Assembly (NCBI RefSeq): GCF_037201915.1
Contig: NZ_CP147505.1
Coordinates: forward strand, 3,038,001 to 3,102,000
DNA from: Haloplanus sp. CK5-1
GTDB taxonomy: Archaea; Halobacteriota; Halobacteria; Halobacteriales; Haloferacaceae
Reading direction: 5' to 3'
Length of the DNA: 64,000 bases
The notes below the pieces were generated by a model. The model worked only from the letters and a program-made list of their open reading frames with translations, had not been told where the DNA came from and did not search any database. Made by a program: the position numbers and the translations under genes. Each line of letters begins with the position of its first letter. Positions within the stretch are counted from its first letter, which is position 1. Of the stretch, positions 18,540 through 42,185 are shown piece after piece.

Positions 18540-20039
18540 CTATCGGTCGATATCGTACAGTTCGGTGTACTTCTCGGTCGCGTAGTCGACGAACGCGTCG
18601 GCGGCGACGTCGGAACCGGTGGCTCGCCGGACGAGTTCGTTCGTCTCGAAGCGCTTGCCGTGGCGGTGGATCCGGTCGGTCAGCCACTCGTGGAGTGGGT
18701 CGAACTCGCCCCGCCGGATCGAGTCGTCGAGGCCGTCGACGTCGCGGTCGGCGGCGTCGAACAGTTGGGCGGCGATCACGCTCCCCAGCGAGTAGGTGGG
18801 GAAGTAGCCGAAGTTGCCGTGCGACCAGTGGATGTCCTGGAGACACCCCTCGGCGTCCGTCTCGGGCCGGACGCCCAGATACGACGCCATCTTCTCGTTC
18901 CAGACGGCCGGCACCTCCGCCACGTCGAGGCCGCCTCGGATCAGGTCGCGTTCGATCTCGAACCGGAGGACGATGTGGAGGTGGTAGGTGAGTTCGTCGG
19001 CCTCGACCCGGACGAGGTTCGTGGGGTCGACGGCGTTGACCGCCTCGTACGCCTCGCGGACGCTCACGTCGCCGACGTCCAAGTGGTCGCGAACCCGCGG
19101 GAGGCACCGCTCCCAGAACGCCGTCGACCGGCCGACGTGGTTCTCCCACAGGCGCGACTGTGACTCGTGGATCGAGAGGTCCCGCGCCTCGCCAAGTGGC
19201 GACCCGTAGGCGTCGTCGGGCAGGCCGAGCGTGTAGGTGGCGTGGCCGAACTCGTGGATCGTCGAGAGCAACGCCCCCATCGGATCCGACTCGTCGTAGC
19301 GGGTGGTGATCCGGGCGTCGTACGTCGTCCCCGTCGAGAACGGATGGGGTGCGGCGTCGAGGCGTCCCCGCTCCCAGGGGTAGCCTAGGTCGTCCAAGAC
19401 GTCCCGCATCAGCGCCTCCTGTCGGTCGGCCTCGAACGTCCCGGCGAAGGCGTCGGTCGCGAGGTCGGCCTCGGACGCCCGAACGCCGTCGACGAGGGGT
19501 ACCACCGCCTCCCGGAGCGTCGTCAACACCTCCTCGGCGTGTTCGAGGGGAAGGCAGGGTTCGTACTCCTCGAACAGCACCTCGTAGGGGTCGCGGTCGG
19601 GGTCGATATGCTCGGCGTAGCGGCGCTTGAGGTCGAGCAGTTCCTCGAGGTGGGGGGCGAACGTCTCGAAGTCGTCGTCCGTCCGGGCCTCGCGCCACGC
19701 GGTCAGCGCCTCCGAAGAGGCGGCCGAGATGCGCTCGACCAGTTCCGTCGGGACCCGGACCGCGCGTTCGCGTTCGCGGCGCACCTCGCGGACGACCGCC
19801 CGTCGCTCGTCGGGGAGGTCGGCGGCCTCCAAGTCGTCGAGGAGCCCACCGAGTTCGTCGGCCGTGAGCAGGTCGTGTTCAACCGCCGAGAGCGCCGAGA
19901 GCTGTCGTGACCGGGCGGGCGTCCCCTTTTCGGGCATCATCACCTGCTGGTCCCAGGAGAGCAGTTCGCCGGCGTGGGAGACGTTCGCGATCCGACCCAC
20001 CCGGTCGAGCAGGTCGTCGTACGCGGTCGTGTCGCTCAT
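18540..20039 (-). CDS. Carboxypeptidase M32 (Taq type)
   Basis: A 499-residue metallocarboxypeptidase that removes C-terminal residues from peptides. The zinc motif HEFGH is at about 261-265, followed by the third ligand in DLSIHESQSRLWEN and the conserved HFSTGTTYD-like block (HPFSTGTTYDARITTRYDE). The N-terminus SHAGELLSWDQQVMMPEKGTPARS is diagnostic for M32. Length is normal (about 500). The ATG at 20039 was chosen over the open upstream frame because the latter crosses the divergent promoter and the inverted repeat at 20085. It likely recycles peptides in the cytoplasm. Confidence 0.93.
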   Translation of the reverse strand: MSDTTAYDDLLDRVGRIANVSHAGELLSWDQQVMMPEKGTPARSRQLSALSAVEHDLLTADELGGLLDDLEAADLPDERRAVVREVRRERERAVRVPTELVERISAASSEALTAWREARTDDDFETFAPHLEELLDLKRRYAEHIDPDRDPYEVLFEEYEPCLPLEHAEEVLTTLREAVVPLVDGVRASEADLATDAFAGTFEADRQEALMRDVLDDLGYPWERGRLDAAPHPFSTGTTYDARITTRYDESDPMGALLSTIHEFGHATYTLGLPDDAYGSPLGEARDLSIHESQSRLWENHVGRSTAFWERCLPRVRDHLDVGDVSVREAYEAVNAVDPTNLVRVEADELTYHLHIVLRFEIERDLIRGGLDVAEVPAVWNEKMASYLGVRPETDAEGCLQDIHWSHGNFGYFPTYSLGSVIAAQLFDAADRDVDGLDDSIRRGEFDPLHEWLTDRIHRHGKRFETNELVRRATGSDVAADAFVDYATEKYTELYDIDR

Positions 20040-20084
20040 GCCCGGACCAGGGACCCCGCGGTAATCAACCCCGCGCCGTCCCCG

Positions 20085-20109
20085 GGTGTTACCACCGAGT
20101 GGTAACACC
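20085..20109. promoter_or_regulatory. Perfect 11-bp inverted repeat, operator candidate
   Basis: GGTGTTACCAC-CGA-GTGGTAACACC. It stands between the divergent M32 and NRAMP-like genes, ending 22 bases before the NRAMP-like ATG and 45 bases before the M32 ATG. The position over the NRAMP-like core promoter suggests a dimeric metal-responsive repressor such as a DtxR-family protein, but the motif is not one I can assign. Confidence 0.65.
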
Positions 20110-20131
20110 TATACGGGCGAGGCGTCCACCG

Positions 20132-21451
20132 ATGGGCATGACCGACGACGCGGCCGCCGGATTCACCGAACGGATCGAAGGGTACGCCACCGAGATGGGG
20201 CCGTCGTGGATCGCCGGGGCCATCGCCGCGGGGCCGGCCACCATCGCCAGCCTGGTGACCGGGGGCGCGCTCTTTGGCTACGGCCTCCTCTGGGTGGTCG
20301 TGCTCTCCGCGGGCGCGGGGGCGCTCGTCCAGTACCTGTCGATGCGGCTCGGTCTCCTCACCGAACGCGGCATCGTCGCCGTCGTCGAGGACCACCTCGG
20401 GACCACCTGGGCCTGGCTGCTCGTCGCCGACGCGGTGATCGCCGCCGGCGTCGCCCAACTCGTCATCATGAAGACCGTCGCGACGGTGTCCGCGACGGTG
20501 ACGGGAATCGACGCCCGGATCTGGGGCGTCGCCTGGGCGCTCGTCCTCGCGCTCGGACTGGCCGGCCGAGGGTATCGCTTCCTCGAACTGGCCGCGAAAC
20601 TCCTCGTCTCGCTGGTCGTCGTTGCCTTCGTCGCCAGCCTGTTCGTCGTTCCCGTCGACTACGGCGCGGCGGCGTCCGGACTGGTCCCCAGCGTGCCCTC
20701 CGGGGGCGCGCTCGTCGCGGCCGGCATCCTCGGCGGTGCGGTCCACATCACGCTCATCACGATGCAGTCGTACACGATGCGCTCACGTGGATGGACCCGC
20801 GACGACTACGGGACCGCCTCCTTCGACGTCGGCGCGTCGATGCTCGTCGCGTTCGGAATCTACAGCCTCGCCATCTTCCTCGTGGCCGCGAGCGTCCTCA
20901 CGCCCGACGACCCCTCGACTGCGGTCGGGGCGGCGCAGGCACTCGGCCCGCTGGTCGGCGCGAACGCCAAGTGGCTGTTCCTCGTCGGACTCTGGGGGGC
21001 CGCCGTCTCCACGCTCGGGGGCAACACTATCGTCCCACCCTTCCTGCTGGCCGACAAACTCGGCTGGGGAACCACCATCGAGGACTCCCGCTACCGCTGG
21101 CTACTGGTCGCGACGGCGCTCCTGTCTGCGCCGGGCGCGTTCATCGGCGGTGCCGTCATCGGCCAACTCGTCCTCGTCCTCGCCGTCGGCACCGTCGGCA
21201 CCCCCTTCGCCATCGCCATCGTCCTCTACCTGCTGAACTCCGACGCGGTGGCCGACCGGAACTCCCGCCTCGCCAACGTCGGGGGCGTCGCGCTGTTGCT
21301 CGTCACCGGCGCGCTCGCGGCCAACTTCGTCCGGGAGCAGGTCGGCGGCGGCGTCGACCCGCTCACCGGGTTCGTGCTCGCCTTCGCCGTCGCGCTCGGC
21401 GTCGCCATGGCGGGGCTTGGCGCCAAGTACGCCATCGAAGAGGTCGGCTGA
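20132..21451 (+). CDS. NRAMP-family transporter with non-canonical metal site
   Basis: A 439-residue membrane protein with about 11 transmembrane helices and NRAMP landmarks: EMGPSWIAGAIAAGPATIASLVTGGALFGYGLLWVV in helix 1 and YRWLLVATALLS later. The metal signatures are altered. The DPGN of helix 1 reads AAGPATIA (32-39) and the helix 6 MPH region reads HITLITMQSY (about 207-216). True manganese or iron NRAMPs need these residues; NRAMP-related proteins without them can carry other substrates. So the ion is uncertain. The start at 20132 (or the ATG two codons on) follows a perfect inverted repeat. A P-loop gene follows at once. Confidence 0.8.
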   Translation: MGMTDDAAAGFTERIEGYATEMGPSWIAGAIAAGPATIASLVTGGALFGYGLLWVVVLSAGAGALVQYLSMRLGLLTERGIVAVVEDHLGTTWAWLLVADAVIAAGVAQLVIMKTVATVSATVTGIDARIWGVAWALVLALGLAGRGYRFLELAAKLLVSLVVVAFVASLFVVPVDYGAAASGLVPSVPSGGALVAAGILGGAVHITLITMQSYTMRSRGWTRDDYGTASFDVGASMLVAFGIYSLAIFLVAASVLTPDDPSTAVGAAQALGPLVGANAKWLFLVGLWGAAVSTLGGNTIVPPFLLADKLGWGTTIEDSRYRWLLVATALLSAPGAFIGGAVIGQLVLVLAVGTVGTPFAIAIVLYLLNSDAVADRNSRLANVGGVALLLVTGALAANFVREQVGGGVDPLTGFVLAFAVALGVAMAGLGAKYAIEEVG

Positions 21452-21458
21452 GCCGCCC

Positions 21459-22022
21459 GTGAGCGACCCCGATCCCACCGTCCCGCGCTCGGGAACGACG
21501 CTGATCCTCGGGCCGTCGAACGCGGGCAAGACTCGCCTGACCGCCCGCGCGCTCGCCGACTGGCTGGACCGCGAGGGGACCGAGGGGGTCGTCGTCTTCG
21601 AGTTCGCGCCCGAAATCGAGCGCGACGGACGGGTTCTGGGCGGCCGTCTCGACCGTTTCTACACCCCGCCACGCGGCGTGTGGACGGGCGTCCTCGACGC
21701 CCACGCCCCCAGAGCGGCCGCCGACTCGCCCGAGGAGGCGGTCGACCTCGCGGCCGACAACGCCCGCCGTGCGACCCGCCTGTTCGACGCCGCGCCCGCC
21801 GACCCCCGTGCCGTGTTCGTCAACGACGCAACCATCCCCTTCCAGCACGACGAGGGCGACCCCGACCGCCTGCTCGACTACTGTGCGACCGCCGAGATAG
21901 CCGTCCTGAACGCGCTCGCGGGCGACGCCATCGCCGGCGACGACGCCGTCTCGCGTGTCGAGCGACGGACGCTGTCGGCGTTCCGCGGTGGCGTCGATCG
22001 GGTGCTCGAACTGGACGGCTGA
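21459..22022 (+). CDS. P-loop NTPase
   Basis: A 187-residue protein with a Walker A motif GPSNAGKTRLTARAL (about 17-31) and a plausible Walker B-like strand AVFVNDATIPF (about 118-128). No further signature lets me name the family; size and motif resemble small ATP-binding kinases or chaperone-like NTPases. The GTG start at 21459 lies 7 bases after the transporter stop, so the two genes form an operon; the reading frame upstream of the GTG overlaps the transporter and is rejected. A link to transporter regulation is possible but only by position. Confidence 0.65.
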   Translation: MSDPDPTVPRSGTTLILGPSNAGKTRLTARALADWLDREGTEGVVVFEFAPEIERDGRVLGGRLDRFYTPPRGVWTGVLDAHAPRAAADSPEEAVDLAADNARRATRLFDAAPADPRAVFVNDATIPFQHDEGDPDRLLDYCATAEIAVLNALAGDAIAGDDAVSRVERRTLSAFRGGVDRVLELDG

Positions 22023-22735: not shown

Positions 22736-23929
22736 TCAGCCGAGTCCGTGCTCGTATCCTGGTGGTAACCCTTCACTGTTTGTCCGATGCTTTTGCTTCC
22801 AGCCGAGCTCATCGTCTAACACCTGCTCGATCCCGTGGAGAAACCCATCACTGAACGTGAAATCTGTCGGGAGTGCTCGCCCGCCACGCCGTGGCCGGGC
22901 GAGCACTGCCCATTGCAACACGAGCCACAACTGCTCCAACAGGAACCCGACACCCACGTAGAAGAGCCGAATTATCGTCGATGGCGTCGTTGTCAAAGCA
23001 CGCGCTTCGCGGAACTTCTCATAGCTCTTCTCGATCCGTGACCGATGGTTGTAGACCTGCGCCACTTGCTGCGGCGTGCGGTCTTCCAGACCGTACGCCG
23101 CGTAGCCCGTTTGTTTGAGCCCTGATTTTCCACGATCACCGTTCTGGTAGGTGACGTTCACTGCCAGCGGATACGTCTGTTCGTACTCTTTGTCTTCACA
23201 GACCGTCTCTTCTGTCATATGCGAAGCAGTGACAGCAAGTTTCTCCCGGAGCGAGTCTTTCCGGGTTATGACCGGAAAGACTGGCGGTGCTGTCTCCCGA
23301 AGAACACCGATTAACTCCCCGACGAAGGCGTCTCTGTCCATGAGGATCTGGTCGGTCTCGAATGGATATGTCTCGACGCGGGCGAGCACGCGCTCGACCG
23401 CGTCGGCCTTGCTGTCCTCGCCATCAACTGGTTCAACTGCCAGTGTTAGTGGCTTTCCCTGCGCGATGACGAACGCAGTACAGTACCGGTGACACTTCGT
23501 GGTTCCGTCCCGTGCTTCCATTCTCCTGAACTCGTCCTCGTCGTCTGGATGACCGTGGAACGGATTGTCCATGAAGTCCAGACAGATGGTTCTCGACCCG
23601 CCGCGGTCGAGAACCGTCATTGCCACCAGTGCGAGGATATCGTTGACAGCATCGAGCATCGGCTCTTTCTCCAGGGTGTGCAACCAGTCCATCACTGGCT
23701 CGCGGTTTGGCGTGTCCTCAGTATTCGTTGTGACGCCGTTGACTGAGGTTGTGTCAACAGCAGCTCGTAAGACGACTTCCATGATCTCCTCGGAATCGAG
23801 GCCAGAGCCCTCGATTCCTTCCATCGGTATCAGCTCAAGCAACTCCATGCTAAGAGACTTCAACTGGCTGTTCGAAATGTACTCGTCCGGATCTGTGAGG
23901 ATGCGTTTGAGTTTTGGTAGCCTCATCAC
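22736..23929 (-). CDS. ISH3-family DDE transposase
   Basis: A 397-residue transposase. The probable catalytic triad is Asp in ICLDFMDNPFHG (about 135), Asp in ILMDRDAFVGEL (about 198) and Glu in YNHRSRIEKSYEKFRE (about 297); the Y-x2-R-x3-E-x6 pattern of the third motif is characteristic of IS4/ISH3-like enzymes. The C-terminus PRRGGRALPTDFTF also matches this group. The frame is intact, so the element may still be active. Base composition is lower in G+C than neighbouring genes, consistent with mobile DNA. Confidence 0.88.
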   Translation of the reverse strand: MMRLPKLKRILTDPDEYISNSQLKSLSMELLELIPMEGIEGSGLDSEEIMEVVLRAAVDTTSVNGVTTNTEDTPNREPVMDWLHTLEKEPMLDAVNDILALVAMTVLDRGGSRTICLDFMDNPFHGHPDDEDEFRRMEARDGTTKCHRYCTAFVIAQGKPLTLAVEPVDGEDSKADAVERVLARVETYPFETDQILMDRDAFVGELIGVLRETAPPVFPVITRKDSLREKLAVTASHMTEETVCEDKEYEQTYPLAVNVTYQNGDRGKSGLKQTGYAAYGLEDRTPQQVAQVYNHRSRIEKSYEKFREARALTTTPSTIIRLFYVGVGFLLEQLWLVLQWAVLARPRRGGRALPTDFTFSDGFLHGIEQVLDDELGWKQKHRTNSEGLPPGYEHGLG

Positions 23930-35999: not shown

Positions 36000-36064
36000 A
36001 ATAGTGTGATAACAGTACCCAAACGACGGAAAGCGTTTTGCCGAGTGGTTCCATACCACGGTGC

Positions 36065-37663
36065 ATGACCGCCGATCGGGCCGTCCTTCGGGAGGCCCTC
36101 GAACGCGGCGAGGAGGAGGGGGGGCCGATCGAGTTCAAGGAACGACTGTCCCGCGACGTCCACTTGGCCGACGGGCGCATGGAGAGTCTGGCCGCACAAC
36201 TCCGCCACCGGATGCTGTCCGGCGACGGCGAGGCGACGTACGTCGTCGGCGTCACGGACGCCGGTCGGGTCGCCGGCATCTCCCCGTCGTCGTTCTCGGA
36301 GTCCATGGACGTCCTCTCCTTGCTCGCGGAGGAAGCAGGCGCACACATCGAGGACGTGGAGACGTGGGGCGTCGGCGGCGACGACGGCGACGGACTGGTC
36401 GGCGTCGCCACCGTCCGCGAGGGCGGTATCCTCGACACCGACGACTCCCACATCGTCGTCGGCACCGCCGGCCACGTCGACCACGGCAAGAGCACGCTCG
36501 TCGGGACGCTCGTCACGGGGCAGGCCGACGACGGCGAGGGCGGCACCCGCGGCTACCTCGACGTCCAGCCCCACGAAGTCGAGCGGGGCCTCTCGGCGGA
36601 CCTCTCCTATGCGGTGTACGGCTTCGACGATTCGGGGCCGGTGCGGATGGACAACCCCCACCGCAAGACCGACCGTGCCCGGGTCGTCGAGGAGGCCGAC
36701 CGCCTCGTCTCGTTCGTCGACACCGTCGGCCACGAGCCGTGGCTCCGGACGACGATCCGGGGACTCGTCGGGCAGAAACTCGACTACGGGCTGTTGACCG
36801 TCGCCGCCGACGACGGCCCGACCGACACGACGCGCGAGCACTTGGGGATCCTGCTCGCGACCGAACTGCCGACGATGGTGGCGATCACGAAGACCGACCT
36901 CGTGAGCGAGGAGCGCGTCGAGGAGGTCGAACGCGCCGTCGAACGCCTCCTTCGAGACGTCGAGGAGACGCCGCTCCGGATCGAACGCCACGGCGTTGGG
37001 ACCGCCGCCGAGGAGATCGGGGACGTGGTGCCCATCCTGAAGACCAGCGCCGTCTCGGGAACCGGGCTGGACGCCCTCGACGACCTGTTCGAACGCCTCC
37101 CCAAGACCAACGGCGACGACGGCGAGTTTCGGATGTACATCGACCGGACGTACTCGGTGACCGGCGTGGGAGCCGTCGCCTCCGGCACCGTCAACTCCGG
37201 CACCGTCGAGGCGGGCGACGACCTCCTCCTCGGGCCGATGGCCGACGGCTCCTTCCGCGAGGTCGAGGTGCGCTCCATCGAGATGCACTACCACCGCGTC
37301 GACCGCGCCGAGGCCGGCCGCATCGTCGGCATCGCGCTCAAGGGCGTCGCGGAGGCGGAGATCGAGCGTGGGATGACCCTCCTGCCCGCCGACGCCGATC
37401 CCACGCCGGTCCGCGAGTTCGAGGCCGACGTGGTCGTCCTCAACCACCCGACCCGCATCGGCACGGGCTATGAACCCGTCGTTCACCTCGAAACGGTCAG
37501 CGAGGCGGCCGTCTTCCGCCCCGAGGACGGGCACCTCCTCCCCGGCGACCACGGGACCACGACCGTCGAGTTCAAATTCCGACCCTACGTGGTCGAGGAG
37601 GGCCAGCGGTTCGTCTTCCGCGAGGGCCGGAGCAAGGGCGTGGGGACGGTCACGGACGTGTAG
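36065..37663 (+). CDS. GTPBP1-like translational GTPase
   Basis: A 532-residue GTPase of the EF-Tu/SelB superfamily. After a 130-residue N-terminal domain, G1 [15 protein letters not shown] lies at about 133-147, G3 reads DTVGHEPWLRTT (instead of DxxGH with Pro), G4 is TKTD and two beta-barrel domains follow (MYIDRTYSVTGVGAVASGTVNSG; GHLLPGDHGTTTVEFKFRPYV). This matches archaeal relatives of eukaryotic GTPBP1, thought to act in mRNA surveillance or tRNA delivery. The start MTADRAVLREAL at 36065 has a TATA-like element 28 bases upstream. An insertion sequence begins 45 bases after the stop. Confidence 0.85.
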   Translation: MTADRAVLREALERGEEEGGPIEFKERLSRDVHLADGRMESLAAQLRHRMLSGDGEATYVVGVTDAGRVAGISPSSFSESMDVLSLLAEEAGAHIEDVETWGVGGDDGDGLVGVATVREGGILDTDDSHIVVGTAGHVDHGKSTLVGTLVTGQADDGEGGTRGYLDVQPHEVERGLSADLSYAVYGFDDSGPVRMDNPHRKTDRARVVEEADRLVSFVDTVGHEPWLRTTIRGLVGQKLDYGLLTVAADDGPTDTTREHLGILLATELPTMVAITKTDLVSEERVEEVERAVERLLRDVEETPLRIERHGVGTAAEEIGDVVPILKTSAVSGTGLDALDDLFERLPKTNGDDGEFRMYIDRTYSVTGVGAVASGTVNSGTVEAGDDLLLGPMADGSFREVEVRSIEMHYHRVDRAEAGRIVGIALKGVAEAEIERGMTLLPADADPTPVREFEADVVVLNHPTRIGTGYEPVVHLETVSEAAVFRPEDGHLLPGDHGTTTVEFKFRPYVVEEGQRFVFREGRSKGVGTVTDV

Positions 37664-37707: not shown

Positions 37708-38776
37708 GAGGGTGTCATAGAACTCTTCTCACACCGTGATGATTGTGCTTCCCGGATTGTCTCCGCGTTCGTAGTTGGTGATTGCGACGACGAGGCGCAG
37801 ACACAACGCGAGGAACACCTGCGCTCGTGCATGGACGCGGCCTCGGGCGTGCGTTCGCCCGAGGCCGCAGCCCTTGACTGATTCGTTGGTTCGTTCGACG
37901 CCACTCCGGCGGTTGTACGTCTCGTCTAGCGTTGATTGCTTCAGCTGAACGTCGTTGCTGTGTTTTTCAATGCGGTCTTCTACCCTGTACTCGATATCTT
38001 TCGGGTCGTCGGTGTTTCGTGGATTGTACGGAGCGACTGGCACGACCCCTGCGGCCAGCAGGTGGTCGTGCCAGTCGAGCGTGTCGTAGGCACTGTCTCC
38101 AAGCATCCACATCGGTTTCCCGACGGCGAGCGCGTCACGCGTGACGCGCATCGCCGTCTCTTCTGGTGCTTGTTTGCTCTCGGTGAACTCGGCTGCAATC
38201 GGGATCTTTTGCCCGGTTGAGACGATCGTGCAGCCGTAGCCGTAGTAGTACTCGTCATCGGTTGGATCATAGCACTTCGATGCGTCTGGATCGGCGGGCA
38301 TCGCTCTCACGTCGGTTGAATCGATAGAATACGTCAAGTCGAGCAGGCCCCGCAAGGCGGCCTGCTCGACGAGATGGTCGAAGACCCGGTCAACAACGTG
38401 CTCAAGATCAGTGAGGAATCGATCGACCGCGTCTCTCGACGGCGGTCGATCGAAGCTACAGCTGAGCCAGACAACGGTGTTGTTCAGTTCTCGTGCAACC
38501 GGACGGATACCGTAGATGTTCTTGTAATAGCAATGGAGAAAGCCACGCATCATCTCGGGCGGCTCAAGATCTCGTGTTCGCCCCGTCTCCGCCGGGGCGA
38601 ACACGTCGAACCCTTCAAGAAACTCGAAGGAGAGGTGCTCGAACAACGCCAACGTCTCCGTTTCCACGGCATTGAAGAACGATTCTACCGAAGGATCATC
38701 TTGCAGGGTCGCTGAACTCATTCCACCTCAGCGTTCACCCTGCTCTTTGGTATGCGAACTGTTCTATGACACCCTC
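37708..38776. mobile_element. Complete 1,069-bp insertion sequence with perfect ends
   Basis: The termini are perfect 16-bp inverted repeats, GAGGGTGTCATAGAAC (37708-37723) and GTTCTATGACACCCTC (38761-38776). They are flanked by a perfect 10-bp direct repeat ATCGCCTCTA. One intact transposase lies inside on the minus strand. Identical ends and duplication suggest a recent insertion. A 10-bp duplication fits several IS4/IS5-related haloarchaeal groups; I cannot name the element. It separates the GTPBP1-like gene from the S-layer gene, ending right at the S-layer promoter. Confidence 0.95.
37729..38721 (-). CDS. DDE transposase (IS4/IS5-like)
   Basis: A 330-residue transposase. The likely catalytic residues are Asp in YSIDSTDVRAMPADPDA (about 137), Asp in MLGDSAYDTLDWHDHL (about 210) and Glu in NRRSGVERTNESVKGCG (about 283), the R-x3-E spacing being typical of IS4/IS5 enzymes. 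The YYYGYGCTIVSTGQKIPIAAEFTESKQ strand pair is the RNase H-like core. The N-terminal FLHCYYKNIYGIRPVARELNN is the DNA-binding region. The frame is intact, so the element is potentially active. The frame starts 40 bases inside the right terminal repeat. Confidence 0.88.
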   Translation of the reverse strand: MSSATLQDDPSVESFFNAVETETLALFEHLSFEFLEGFDVFAPAETGRTRDLEPPEMMRGFLHCYYKNIYGIRPVARELNNTVVWLSCSFDRPPSRDAVDRFLTDLEHVVDRVFDHLVEQAALRGLLDLTYSIDSTDVRAMPADPDASKCYDPTDDEYYYGYGCTIVSTGQKIPIAAEFTESKQAPEETAMRVTRDALAVGKPMWMLGDSAYDTLDWHDHLLAAGVVPVAPYNPRNTDDPKDIEYRVEDRIEKHSNDVQLKQSTLDETYNRRSGVERTNESVKGCGLGRTHARGRVHARAQVFLALCLRLVVAITNYERGDNPGSTIITV

Positions 38777-38786
38777 ATCGCCTCTA
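38777..38786 (+). repeat. Target-site duplication, right copy
   Basis: ATCGCCTCTA, directly followed by the TTTAAA of the S-layer promoter. Confidence 0.9.
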
Positions 38787-38796
38787 TTTAAAACAG
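38784..38796 (+). promoter_or_regulatory. TATA box of the S-layer gene
   Basis: CTATTTAAAACAG. The TATA core TTTAAA starts at 38787, one base after the insertion-sequence duplication. It predicts transcription starting near 38,812-38,815 and a leader of about 70 bases before the ATG at 38883; long leaders are known for haloarchaeal S-layer genes. The element bearing the duplication keeps 10 bases of the original upstream sequence. Confidence 0.65.
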
Positions 38797-38882
38797 TAGT
38801 CACCCCTACCACTGTGGCCAGACCTCCCGTCACGCCACGATCAGGTACGGCAGAGCGGTTCCACATACGATACAAGCAACAT

Positions 38883-41800
38883 ATGACGGACTACAACGAC
38901 AAGATCCGCGCGGTCGTCCTCGCGGCGCTCATGGTGTTCTCGGTTTTCGCCGGCACCGTGGCGCTCTCGGGGTCGGCTACCGCGACTGTAGACACTATCA
39001 ATGGTGACGCCGCCACTGAAGACGTCGAGATTGGGCAGAGCCAAGTGACACAGAACGTAGTGTTCGACGTAACGATCGACGGTCAATCAAACACGGAGAC
39101 GGTCAACATCAACGTATCGGAGGCCACCGATGCCGGATCCAGTATCGAGGATCTCGATGCCGGCAACGTCACGGTCGGTGGCACTGACTCCGCCGAGGTC
39201 AGCCTCGGGACCATCAACAACGACCTCGGGGCGGGCGACCCGAACATCGACATCGACCTCCAAGACGATACTCAAGACGGTACCTCCCACACCGTCACGA
39301 TAACCGCCACGCTGACACACGACACCGGCAGTATCAGTTCGGAATCGAGTCCGAACACGTACAACATTACGAACACGACTGGTACTACTGGGACGGCTAG
39401 TGGGACGGTCGACTTCGCCTTCCAAGACACGACCGCCCCGACGGTCGTCATCAACAGCGTCTCCCCGACTTCTCCCGGTCAGTACGGCACCGTGACCGTC
39501 GACTACAACCTGACGGACGCGGGTACCGGCGTCGACACCACGGGGTCGGTTACGAACCTGACGCTAGAGGACAGCGACGGCGACAAGATCGCCGACACCA
39601 GCCTGACGACTGGAACCAATCAAGAGACGACGTTCGATCTCACGAACCTCGCCGGCGGCGAGGCGGCGCCCGGGACGCTCACGCTGGAACTCAACGGGAC
39701 GGACAGCGACTCCGTCACCGATCCAGAGACGGCGTCGCCCATCGACACCAGCGCCTCGGTGACGGGCGTCGGCAGCGACAATCGCGCGCTGTACACGAAC
39801 GGGACCGGCACCTTCGACACTCGTGACGGTACGGGCGTCGTCTTCGACGGCGCGGACGTGTTCCAGGGTGAGGAAGACATCGAGTTCGGCGGGCCCACCT
39901 CCCTGACGGGTGTCAGCGGTGACGCCGAGGGCCAGACCCTCCAGCTTCCGGTCAGCCAGAGCCAGGCGACTGGACAGTACGACGAGGACGGCCCGGACGT
40001 GTTCCGAAACGGCGATAACGTCGGCGTGACAGTGCTCGAACCGCGTGTCACCACCTTCGACATCGAGAACAACAACGGCGAGGACATCTCGGGCAGCTCG
40101 GTCCCGCAAGGTCAGACGGACGAGCGCGGCGCGGGTGACCTCACCGTCGTTGCCGACTACAACTACAACCAGGCCGAGGACCTCGAACTCACCGTCGAGA
40201 ACGAAGACGGTCTCGACGTGACCGGCGACGCTATCGACGGCAACGCTAACGCCTTCGAGAACTCCAACGGCGAGGTCACTTGGGACCTCGACCTCTCGGA
40301 CCTCAACACGGGGACGTTCACCATCGAAGTCGCTGGCTCGGACGACCTCGACTTCGGTAGCGCAACCGAGTCGACGACGGTCACCGTGACCGGCGACGAC
40401 GACGTCACGCTCGACCTCGCATCCGATTCGGTCACGCGCGGACAGGACGTGACCTACACGATCCGCGGGTCGAACGCCGGCGACACGCACGCTATCGCCA
40501 TCAGCGGCGATGACTTCCGCGACAACGCGAACAACCGCGACCGGATCTTCCGCGATGTCGGTGACGTCGAATACCGCGGCTACAACGCGAGCAGCGACGT
40601 CGCGTGGGCCGTCGTTCAGATCGACGACGACACCGGTGTCGGCGTCGGTCAGGTCGACACGAGCCAACTCGACACGACTGACGTCGACGTCGACCTCTAC
40701 GCGTCGTCCAACATCGACCTTGCGACGGCCGGCACGGCCGAATTCGACGCGAACAACACGATCGCGAACAACGACCCCGAGGACGACCCCTCGCTAGAAG
40801 TCGAAGAGGGTGAAGTCTCGGTCAACACGCCCGGCGAAACCTACGTTGTCGGCAGCGAAGTCGACATCAACGGCACGGCCTCGGAAGGCATCGAAGACGT
40901 CGCCTTCTACGTCCGTCGCCAGGGCGAATACAAGCTCCTCGAACTCGACAGCAACGCGGACCCGCAGACGACGATCTCCGTCGACGCGGACGACACCTTC
41001 GAGAAAGAGGACGTCGTGCTGAGCGAACACGGCGGCAACGGGAACGACCTCCTGTCCCAGCCGGGCACCTACCGCTTCGGTGTCATCGACGCCGCTGACG
41101 TGAACGGTACGTCGGGTACCACTCCGAGCGTCAACGTCTCGGCGTTCAACACGGGCACGAGCTCGCAGAAGTCCCTCCGTGTCGTCGACACGGAACTGGA
41201 AGCGAACTTCCAGACGGTCGGCGGCCAGGTCTCGACTGATGACGATGTCATCAACGTGACCGGGACGTCGCTGGGTTCGCAGACGGTCGCGTTCCTCTTC
41301 ATCGACGAACGTGGGAACGTCGCGTACACCAGCGTGACCACGGACGACGACAACACGTTCGAAGAGGACGAACTCGACATCAGCGGTGACAACAACATGG
41401 ACCTCGCTGAAGGGCAGGTCAGCGCCCACGCACTCACGGCCGGGCGCGACGGCTCCTTCGGTGACGGTGAACTCCCCGGATCCAACACCGGTGACGACAC
41501 CTACACGAACCTCTCGAACTTCGTTGACGAGCTCAACGACCAGTCGCTGACGGGCGACCAGGCACGAGCACGCGTCCTGGATCAGACGACCGAAGCAGTC
41601 GCGAGCGACGACCGGGTGGTCACCTCGACCTTCCGGCTTGCGGACTCGCAGTCGACGATCCAGAGCGTCTACCCCGAAGGCATGGAAGCCTCGGGCGTCA
41701 ACCCGGTCGGCGTCGACGACACGATGGTCGTCGAAGGCGCGACCAACCTCCGTCCGGACGACAACTCGATCACCGTCGAACTCATGACGCAGGAGGGCGA

Positions 41801-42185
41801 CTCGGTCGCACTGACGACGACCGACGAGTGGTCCTACGACGGTCAGTGGATGGTCTCCCTCGAACTCGAGGACGTGCAGACGGGCACGTACGACATCGAG
41901 GCCGACGACAGCTACAACACTGACGTCACCGAGGTAGAGATCGTCCAGAACCGCCAGACTGCGACGCCGGAGCCGACGGACACGCCGGAACCGACGGCAA
42001 CGGACACGCCGGAACCGACGGACACGGCGAGGGACACACCCGAGCCTGACACGGCGACGGACACGCCCGAACCGGACACGGCGACCGCAACGCCGACGTC
42101 CGAGGGCGGCCCCGGCTTCGGTGCGGTCATCGCGGTCATCGCGCTCTTGGCGGCTGCGCTGCTGGCCGTCCGACGCGACAACTAA
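38883..42185 (+). CDS. csg: S-layer glycoprotein with PGF-CTERM anchor
   Basis: A 1,100-residue secreted glycoprotein that forms the cell-wall lattice. Residues 1-34 are the halo surface-glycoprotein signal (MTDYNDKIRAVVLAAL..., cleaved near SGSATA). The mature part is acidic, Thr/Asp/Asn-rich, with many N-glycosylation sequons (NVS, NVT, NIT, NLT, NGT) and repeated beta-sandwich-like units; a BGTF-type domain lies near 935-1018 (TNLRPDDNSITVELM...). A Thr/Pro stalk (about 1027-1070) precedes the C-terminal GGPGFGAVIAVIALL helix and RRDN, the PGF-CTERM signal recognised by archaeosortase ArtA. The start at 38883 is preferred: the frame upstream runs into the insertion-sequence end. Codon usage is biased towards GAC/AAC/ACG, as expected for an abundant protein. 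Confidence 0.95.
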   Translation: MTDYNDKIRAVVLAALMVFSVFAGTVALSGSATATVDTINGDAATEDVEIGQSQVTQNVVFDVTIDGQSNTETVNINVSEATDAGSSIEDLDAGNVTVGGTDSAEVSLGTINNDLGAGDPNIDIDLQDDTQDGTSHTVTITATLTHDTGSISSESSPNTYNITNTTGTTGTASGTVDFAFQDTTAPTVVINSVSPTSPGQYGTVTVDYNLTDAGTGVDTTGSVTNLTLEDSDGDKIADTSLTTGTNQETTFDLTNLAGGEAAPGTLTLELNGTDSDSVTDPETASPIDTSASVTGVGSDNRALYTNGTGTFDTRDGTGVVFDGADVFQGEEDIEFGGPTSLTGVSGDAEGQTLQLPVSQSQATGQYDEDGPDVFRNGDNVGVTVLEPRVTTFDIENNNGEDISGSSVPQGQTDERGAGDLTVVADYNYNQAEDLELTVENEDGLDVTGDAIDGNANAFENSNGEVTWDLDLSDLNTGTFTIEVAGSDDLDFGSATESTTVTVTGDDDVTLDLASDSVTRGQDVTYTIRGSNAGDTHAIAISGDDFRDNANNRDRIFRDVGDVEYRGYNASSDVAWAVVQIDDDTGVGVGQVDTSQLDTTDVDVDLYASSNIDLATAGTAEFDANNTIANNDPEDDPSLEVEEGEVSVNTPGETYVVGSEVDINGTASEGIEDVAFYVRRQGEYKLLELDSNADPQTTISVDADDTFEKEDVVLSEHGGNGNDLLSQPGTYRFGVIDAADVNGTSGTTPSVNVSAFNTGTSSQKSLRVVDTELEANFQTVGGQVSTDDDVINVTGTSLGSQTVAFLFIDERGNVAYTSVTTDDDNTFEEDELDISGDNNMDLAEGQVSAHALTAGRDGSFGDGELPGSNTGDDTYTNLSNFVDELNDQSLTGDQARARVLDQTTEAVASDDRVVTSTFRLADSQSTIQSVYPEGMEASGVNPVGVDDTMVVEGATNLRPDDNSITVELMTQEGDSVALTTTDEWSYDGQWMVSLELEDVQTGTYDIEADDSYNTDVTEVEIVQNRQTATPEPTDTPEPTATDTPEPTDTARDTPEPDTATDTPEPDTATATPTSEGGPGFGAVIAVIALLAAALLAVRRDN
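41958..42100 (+). repeat. Tandem repeats encoding the Thr/Pro stalk
   Basis: Units of acgccggaaccgacggac and variants encode TPEPTD-like repeats just before the C-terminal anchor. Such repeats set stalk length and are likely O-glycosylated. Confidence 0.8.

What the first reader, a model, noticed from the sequence alone, without database searches (positions are those of the whole stretch)
20085..21451. NRAMP-like transporter lacking DPGN and MPH, beside a perfect 11-bp inverted repeat
Both metal-coordinating signatures are replaced (AAGPATIA in helix 1; HITLITMQSY in helix 6), so it should not carry Mn or Fe in the standard way. Yet a strong operator-like palindrome, GGTGTTACCAC-CGA and its complement, lies over its promoter. 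It may transport a different ion or be a sensor, and a P-loop NTPase is co-transcribed.
Basis: partly seen in the sequence, partly recalled or inferred. Interest (0 to 1): 0.5.

Follow-up and report, generated by a model that had tools for sequence, protein, structure and literature searches.

The report
Vitamin B1 salvage transporter, Nramp-type
A salt-loving archaeon's gene that databases label a metal transporter is better explained as part of vitamin B1 (thiamine) salvage, because it shares its on/off switch and its genomic company with thiamine genes in many relatives; if right, a whole branch of a famous metal-transporter family may carry organic molecules instead.

Summary
The gene (20132/20138-21451, +) belongs to Pfam Nramp, yet its DPGN and MPH sites read GPAT and HIT, conserved in 45 of 45 orthologue rows, and three proton-pathway acids are also gone. 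The perfect inverted repeat is real. It is best read as two tandem copies, 13 bp apart, of a thiamine-gene operator: a matrix trained only on thiC promoters of other haloarchaea picks its two arms as the two best sites of the 64-kb window, and finds sites above the control 95th percentile in 27 of 43 orthologue promoters. The genome's own tenA and an SSS-type symporter gene carry similar sites. In relatives the gene lies beside tenA or ThiN-domain genes in at least 28 of 65 places and co-occurs with tenA (62 of 64 genomes, against 40 of 84 without it). The genome lacks thiC and encodes two HTH-ThiN (ThiR-type) regulators. The downstream P-loop gene occurs only behind this transporter (32 of 32 genomes). 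Best explanation: an importer of thiamine or its pyrimidine part, under a thiamine-sensing regulator, often with a dedicated P-loop partner. Substrate, direction and regulator binding are inferred. RefSeq's label "divalent metal cation transporter" is probably wrong.

The parts
20132..21451 (+). Nramp-related transporter, predicted importer of thiamine or its pyrimidine precursor (likely start ATG 20138)
   Evidence: Pfam Nramp 244.6 bits; GPAT/HIT in place of DPGN/MPH, conserved in 45 of 45 rows; thiamine context
20085..20096 (.). operator copy 1 (GGTGTTACCACC), left arm of the inverted repeat
   Evidence: matrix trained on thiC promoters: 11.5 at 20082-20099, second best of the 64-kb window
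20098..20109 (.). operator copy 2 (AGTGGTAACACC), right arm, 13 bp from copy 1, abutting the TATA-like CTATAC
   Evidence: 12.0 at 20095-20112, best of the window; 13-bp spacing is the only peak among offsets 5-30 in 27 promoters
20110..20115 (+). TATA-like element CTATAC, about 25 bp before the likely leaderless start 20138
   Evidence: read from the sequence; inference
21459..22022 (+). P-loop NTPase, obligate partner; candidate small-molecule kinase
   Evidence: 32 of 148 genomes, all with the transporter and directly downstream of it; RecA-type fold near CobA, thymidine kinase, CobU and Rho
18540..20039 (-). divergent M32 carboxypeptidase sharing the intergenic region; a same-genus neighbour, probably not part of the system
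   Evidence: Pfam Peptidase_M32 547.7 bits; absent from most other loci

Best explanation
The gene encodes an LeuT-fold transporter of the Nramp-related group that imports thiamine, or its aminopyrimidine part (HMP or a breakdown product), for vitamin B1 salvage. A ThiR-type repressor (HTH plus ThiN domain) binds the two tandem sites over the promoter when thiamine phosphates are plentiful, and lets go when they run short. Inside, TenA and ThiDN return the pyrimidine to the pathway. The P-loop protein, in lineages that have it, phosphorylates the imported compound and so traps it. SHOWN here by computation: loss of the metal and proton residues, conserved operator shared with thiC/tenA promoters, thiamine-gene neighbourhoods, co-occurrence with tenA, obligate P-loop partner, no ThiC hit and presence of Thi4, ThiDN, TenA and two HTH-ThiN proteins in this genome. 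INFERRED: the regulator's identity, substrate, direction, and kinase activity.
For: (1) Operator: a matrix from 19 thiC promoters of other haloarchaea scores 27 of 43 orthologue promoters above the 95th and 23 of 43 above the 99th percentile of 302 non-redundant control upstream regions; 0 of 100 column-shuffled matrices reach 27 (highest 14). The two best sites in the 64-kb window are the two arms. (2) Same genome: tenA promoter 11.4 with two half-sites 13 bp apart, SSS-symporter promoter 11.1; control 99th percentile 10.0-10.6. (3) Neighbourhoods: tenA or a ThiN-domain gene within 8 kb in 28 of 65 places; annotated tenA/thiD beside it in 5 of 10 plasmid regions opened, including a Halobaculum cluster of transporter, P-loop, symporter, two TenA, thiD and a ThiN-type protein. 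(4) Co-occurrence with tenA 62/64 against 40/84 (Fisher 1e-11; within-genus permutation 5e-5, the floor) and with the symporter 56/64 against 8/84. (5) No ThiC in this genome; TenA, ThiD domain and Thi4 above NCBIfam cut-offs; two HTH-ThiN proteins. (6) A second Nramp-related clade lies beside hydantoinase/oxoprolinase genes in 7 of 7 loci inspected; PxpT, a published member of the wider family, is needed for growth on 5-oxoproline (PMC13274462, passages).
Against: No binding, uptake or growth data. 16 of 43 orthologue promoters have no site above the 95th percentile, among them 5 of 7 Haloarcula ones; some of these genes may lie inside operons. In this genome the thi4, thiDN and both HTH-ThiN upstream regions have no site, and strict single sites are not enriched genome-wide (7 against 6 for the reversed pattern). 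The window locus itself has no thiamine neighbour (nearest ThiN gene 61 kb, tenA 876 kb). No association with thiC presence or absence across genomes (21/64 against 26/84). Two genomes have the transporter without tenA. The symporter could be the main importer. The structure model of the transporter was too poor to inspect a binding site (pLDDT 57).
Confidence: 0.75

Rival explanations
1. It is a divalent metal (Mn, Mg, Fe) importer with a changed coordination site that happens to be thiamine-regulated, for instance to feed Mg or Mn to thiamine-diphosphate enzymes.
For: Pfam Nramp membership; RefSeq calls all 13 annotated haloarchaeal plasmid orthologues 'divalent metal cation transporter'; the family member YcsG/MntG was reported to raise cellular Mn in B. 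subtilis (PMC10448178, passages); His205 and Thr207 could bind a metal.
Against: The DPGN and MPH ligands and the TM3 acids are replaced, and the TM1/TM6 replacements are invariant; genomic company is thiamine salvage.
Confidence: 0.1
2. It belongs to thiamine salvage but carries another compound of the pathway, such as the thiazole or a sulfur or amino-acid precursor, while the SSS symporter brings in HMP.
For: Strong co-occurrence of the two transporters (56 of 64 genomes) suggests different jobs rather than replacement; both often stand near tenA.
Against: Here the thiazole branch (Thi4) is present and the pyrimidine branch (ThiC) missing, and no hydroxyethylthiazole-kinase family hit reaches its cut-off, so thiazole import has no obvious use.
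Confidence: 0.1
3. It exports thiamine or a breakdown product, or senses thiamine without carrying it.
For: Direction cannot be read from sequence; EIN2-type signalling Nramp domains are known (recalled).
Against: An operator shared with biosynthesis and salvage genes predicts expression on thiamine shortage, when export makes little sense; no extra signalling domain found.
Confidence: 0.05

Closest known systems
Canonical Nramp/MntH (SLC11; DraNramp 5kte)
   Same: Pfam family and near full-length alignment (E 6e-15).
   Different: No DPGN, no MPH, none of the three TM3 acids compared; thiamine operator; found only in one archaeal order among the genomes searched (21 of 294 in the phylum, all same order).
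Nramp-related proteins (Ray, Berry and Gaudet, PMC12873925; passages seen)
   Same: Defined there as lacking the TM1/TM6 metal motifs and the proton pathway; most groups called uncharacterized.
   Different: The passages seen offer no vitamin substrate. Which of its groups this clade falls into could not be read, because the figure is not held.
PxpT/YcsG (MntG)
   Same: Nramp-family member tied by genetics to an organic substrate, 5-oxoproline, in a regulated catabolic operon (PMC13274462, passages).
   Different: No oxoprolinase gene was recognised beside our clade; YcsG is also reported as a Mn importer (PMC10448178, passages). Sequences were not compared.
ThiR regulon of archaea (Rodionov 2017; Hwang 2017, Haloferax)
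   Same: HTH-ThiN regulators and palindromic operators upstream of thiamine genes (recalled; neither paper is held; they appear in reference lists seen).
   Different: Whether those papers already list this transporter among targets could not be checked.
CobU / thymidine kinase / corrinoid adenosyltransferase (for the P-loop partner)
   Same: Predicted RecA-type fold aligns over nearly the whole domain (CobA Z 12.2, rmsd 3.1, 143 aligned; thymidine kinase Z 12.0, 2.9, 128; CobU Z 11.4, 3.1, 135).
   Different: Rho and KaiC score as well (12.2, 11.3) and Pfam matches stay below cut-off, so no family is assigned.

Membership tests
Canonical Nramp (SLC11) metal transporters | match to the Nramp sequence family | tested here: met
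   PF01566 244.6 bits, cut-off 29.8
Canonical Nramp (SLC11) metal transporters | DPGN in TM1 | tested here: not met
   GPAT, 45 of 45 rows
Canonical Nramp (SLC11) metal transporters | MPH in TM6 | tested here: not met
   H-(I/V)-T, 45 of 45 rows
Canonical Nramp (SLC11) metal transporters | acidic proton-pathway residues in TM3 | tested here: not met
   E124, D131 and E134 align with V102, Q109 and I112
Canonical Nramp (SLC11) metal transporters | Mn/Fe transport | not testable with these tools
   needs an assay
Nramp-related proteins | Nramp homology without the TM1 and TM6 metal motifs | tested here: met
   definition from PMC12873925 passages
Nramp-related proteins | placement in a named subgroup (NRMT-like, G-motif) | not tested
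   no tree with reference members was built; the published logos are not held
ThiR regulon | HTH-ThiN regulator in the genome | tested here: met
   two, in L087 and L088: HTH plus ThiN
ThiR regulon | operator shared with thiC and other thiamine genes | tested here: met
   27 of 43 promoters above the 95th percentile, 0 of 100 shuffled matrices; own tenA and symporter
ThiR regulon | binding by the regulator | not testable with these tools
   needs EMSA or ChIP
small-molecule P-loop kinases (CobU, thymidine kinase) | family-level sequence or fold match | tested here: inconclusive
   RecA-type fold tied between kinases, CobA, Rho and KaiC; no Pfam hit over cut-off

The most novel reading that the evidence does not exclude
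The haloarchaeal Nramp-related proteins, and perhaps much of that uncharacterised branch, are organic-solute carriers rather than metal carriers: one clade moves thiamine or its pyrimidine and works with a dedicated, previously undescribed P-loop kinase that traps it, a second serves hydantoin/5-oxoproline breakdown, a third sits by sugar-type dehydrogenases. Metal transport would then be one late specialty of the superfamily.
Probability: 0.4. Interest if true: 0.8.

Novelty: new variant of a known kind. Interest (0 to 1): 0.62.

Why it matters
Automatic annotation calls these proteins divalent metal transporters. If they carry thiamine or its pyrimidine, metal-uptake inventories of haloarchaea are wrong at this gene, and a vitamin B1 uptake route gets a candidate. 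It would also give the uncharacterised Nramp-related branch a testable function, help explain how metal specificity arose within an amino-acid-transporter-like fold, and offer a P-loop family as a candidate for the thiamine-phosphorylation step, for which this genome has no thiamine pyrophosphokinase hit.

Tried and rejected
A metal operator: not pursued once the arms matched thiC promoters. One long palindrome as the operator: set aside, since perfect symmetry occurs in only 2 of 12 same-genus promoters while a two-site layout with 13-bp spacing is the rule among promoters with a site. A link to loss of thiC: no association across 148 genomes, although this genome and 10 of its 11 same-genus relatives lack ThiC. 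Single strict sites as a genome-wide marker: 7 against 6 in the control. The site at G000:C1:144832 lies between an alcohol-dehydrogenase-like and a histidine-kinase-like gene (names read by eye) and is held to be chance. Structure of the transporter: pLDDT 57, not used or searched. Reading the P-loop protein as a CobU from a by-eye likeness: not confirmed by profile search. Sigma-70 and terminator scan: nothing (not suited to archaea).

Rows dropped or choices made: the matches of about 26-28% identity (other clades) were left out of the orthologue counts, and G027's two fragments were counted as one gene; a second short G041 fragment was not counted. L034 and L035 were left out of promoter counts as repeats of L006 and L008. 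Twenty of the 50 thiC places listed were fetched, and one (L116) gave no start and was not used for training. The ThiN and TenA lists are truncated, so proximity counts are lower bounds. The tenA and symporter promoters were scanned over 130 bp against 100 bp for controls: 13 of 18 tenA regions exceed 6.15 (the 95th percentile); of 14 symporter regions 4 do, and one more, the window genome's own, after its start was corrected. One genome in the symporter list (G015, 38% identity) was left out of the co-occurrence count.

Full report
What is there. The window comes from a haloarchaeal genome whose nearest named relatives among those found are Haloplanus. The gene at 20132-21451 (+) belongs to the Pfam Nramp family (244.6 bits), but DPGN and MPH are replaced by GPAT and HIT (aligned to DraNramp), and three TM3 acids of the proton pathway are gone too. 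The replacing residues G34, P35, A36, T37, H205 and T207 are invariant in 45 of 45 orthologue rows, so the protein is a conserved variant and not a decayed gene. A P-loop gene follows 7 bp downstream; an M32 carboxypeptidase gene runs the other way.

The palindrome. The 25-bp perfect inverted repeat at 20085-20109 is the only match with up to three mismatches in the window and in the genome. Repeats of its size do occur by chance, so I tested function by comparison. Promoters of thiC, the pyrimidine-synthesis gene of thiamine, were taken from 20 haloarchaeal places; 19 gave a clear start. They share a core like AGTGRTAYCACT. Each arm of the window repeat is itself such a site (GTGTTACCAC and GTGGTAACAC). 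A symmetrised 18-bp matrix trained only on thiC promoters ranks the two arms first and second among all positions of the 64-kb window (12.0 and 11.5). It puts 27 of 43 orthologue promoters above the 95th and 23 above the 99th percentile of 302 non-redundant control upstream regions; 11 of 12 in the same genus and 16 of 31 elsewhere pass the 95th. None of 100 column-shuffled matrices reached 27; the highest gave 14. In the 27 promoters with a site the mean partner score peaks at a spacing of 13 bp and nowhere else between 5 and 30. In this genome the tenA promoter (11.4, second half-site 13 bp away) and the promoter of an SSS-type symporter (11.1) also carry sites; thi4, thiDN and both HTH-ThiN genes do not. 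Single strict sites are not enriched genome-wide (7 against 6 for the reversed control), so the weight rests on conservation and on the thiC-trained test.

The company it keeps. In relatives the gene sits in thiamine-salvage clusters: TenA, ThiD/ThiDN, an SSS-type symporter and ThiN-domain proteins. Of 65 places in 64 genomes, 26 have tenA and 13 a ThiN-domain gene within 8 kb, 28 either; the lists are truncated, so these are lower bounds. Of ten annotated plasmid regions opened (of 15 haloarchaeal hits), five have tenA or thiD beside it, and RefSeq labels the transporter 'divalent metal cation transporter' in all 13 annotated haloarchaeal hits. Across 148 genomes of the family, 62 of 64 with the gene have tenA against 40 of 84 without (within-genus permutation p 5e-5, the floor of 20,000 draws); there is no association with thiC (21 of 64 against 26 of 84). 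Two genomes have it without tenA. In the phylum, 21 of 294 genomes have it, all in one order.

This genome's own thiamine equipment. No ThiC, no thiamine pyrophosphokinase hit, and only a sub-cut-off hydroxyethylthiazole-kinase hit. TenA, a ThiD domain and Thi4 pass NCBIfam cut-offs. Three ThiN loci are present, two of them HTH-ThiN proteins of the architecture reported for the archaeal regulator ThiR (recalled; the papers are not held). So the cell appears able to make the thiazole but not the pyrimidine, and would need pyrimidine or thiamine from outside.

The partner. The P-loop protein is found in 32 of 148 genomes, every time in a genome with the transporter and directly downstream of it; 32 of 64 genomes with the transporter lack it. 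Its model is good (pLDDT 86.8) and shows a RecA-type fold about equally close to corrinoid adenosyltransferase, thymidine kinase, CobU, Rho and KaiC; no Pfam family reaches its cut-off. A kinase that traps the imported compound is my inference.

How it most likely works. On thiamine shortage a ThiR-type repressor leaves the two sites next to the TATA element, the transporter (and partner) is made, thiamine or its pyrimidine enters, and TenA and ThiDN feed it into thiamine phosphate. The regulator, substrate, direction and kinase step are inferred.

Wider pattern. Two other Nramp-related clades in haloarchaea also lack DPGN. One lies beside hydantoinase/oxoprolinase genes in 7 of 7 loci inspected (five by similarity, two annotated). 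The other, which includes this genome's own paralogue, has Gfo/Idh/MocA-type genes nearby in three of three loci, one of them only by a weak 24% match. A distant annotated hit (H28, 29% identity to the first of these clades) has neither kind of neighbour. With PxpT and 5-oxoproline (PMC13274462, passages) this suggests organic substrates for more of the branch; the Mn report for YcsG (PMC10448178, passages) is counter-evidence.

Known or new. A 2026 preprint defines Nramp-related proteins as lacking these motifs and calls most groups uncharacterised (PMC12873925, passages). Searches for Nramp or haloarchaea together with thiamine terms found no paper making this link in the held library (listings only, plus passages of PMC3403918, which name ThiBPQ as a thiamine transporter). 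The two 2017 ThiR papers could not be read and might list the gene.

Noticed in passing
L077, L078, L079, L080, L083 (whole loci), L185, L186: Another haloarchaeal Nramp-related clade (TM1 AFIGPGTVTTAS) lies beside hydantoinase/oxoprolinase genes in 7 of 7 loci inspected, pointing to an organic substrate though RefSeq calls it a divalent metal transporter.
   Followed up: partly
L124 5886-7145; L081; L082: This genome's only other Nramp-family gene (TM1 VVVGPGSIALST) and two relatives have Gfo/Idh/MocA-type oxidoreductase genes nearby (weak match in L082); no DPGN there either.
   Followed up: partly
window 37729-38721 and 38766-42185: A DDE transposase gene (- strand) lies 44 bp upstream of, and divergent from, a 1139-aa PGF-CTERM surface-protein gene (S-layer-like by eye); the insertion may affect its promoter.
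   Followed up: no
window 37837-37868, 38338-38370, 38573-38605: Three long GC-rich perfect inverted repeats lie inside that transposase gene; two more (23254-23282, 23588-23615) lie inside the transposase-like gene at 22736-23929.
   Followed up: no
window 36038-37663: EF-Tu-like translational GTPase (GTP_EFTU plus domains 2 and 3) with about 135 extra N-terminal residues that gave no Pfam match.
   Followed up: no
L088 4218-5246 and 7023-8201: One of the two HTH-ThiN regulator genes lies near a permease-like gene (NCS1-like by eye, no family search) whose start is unclear and which may be truncated; it could be a further thiamine-related transporter.
   Followed up: no
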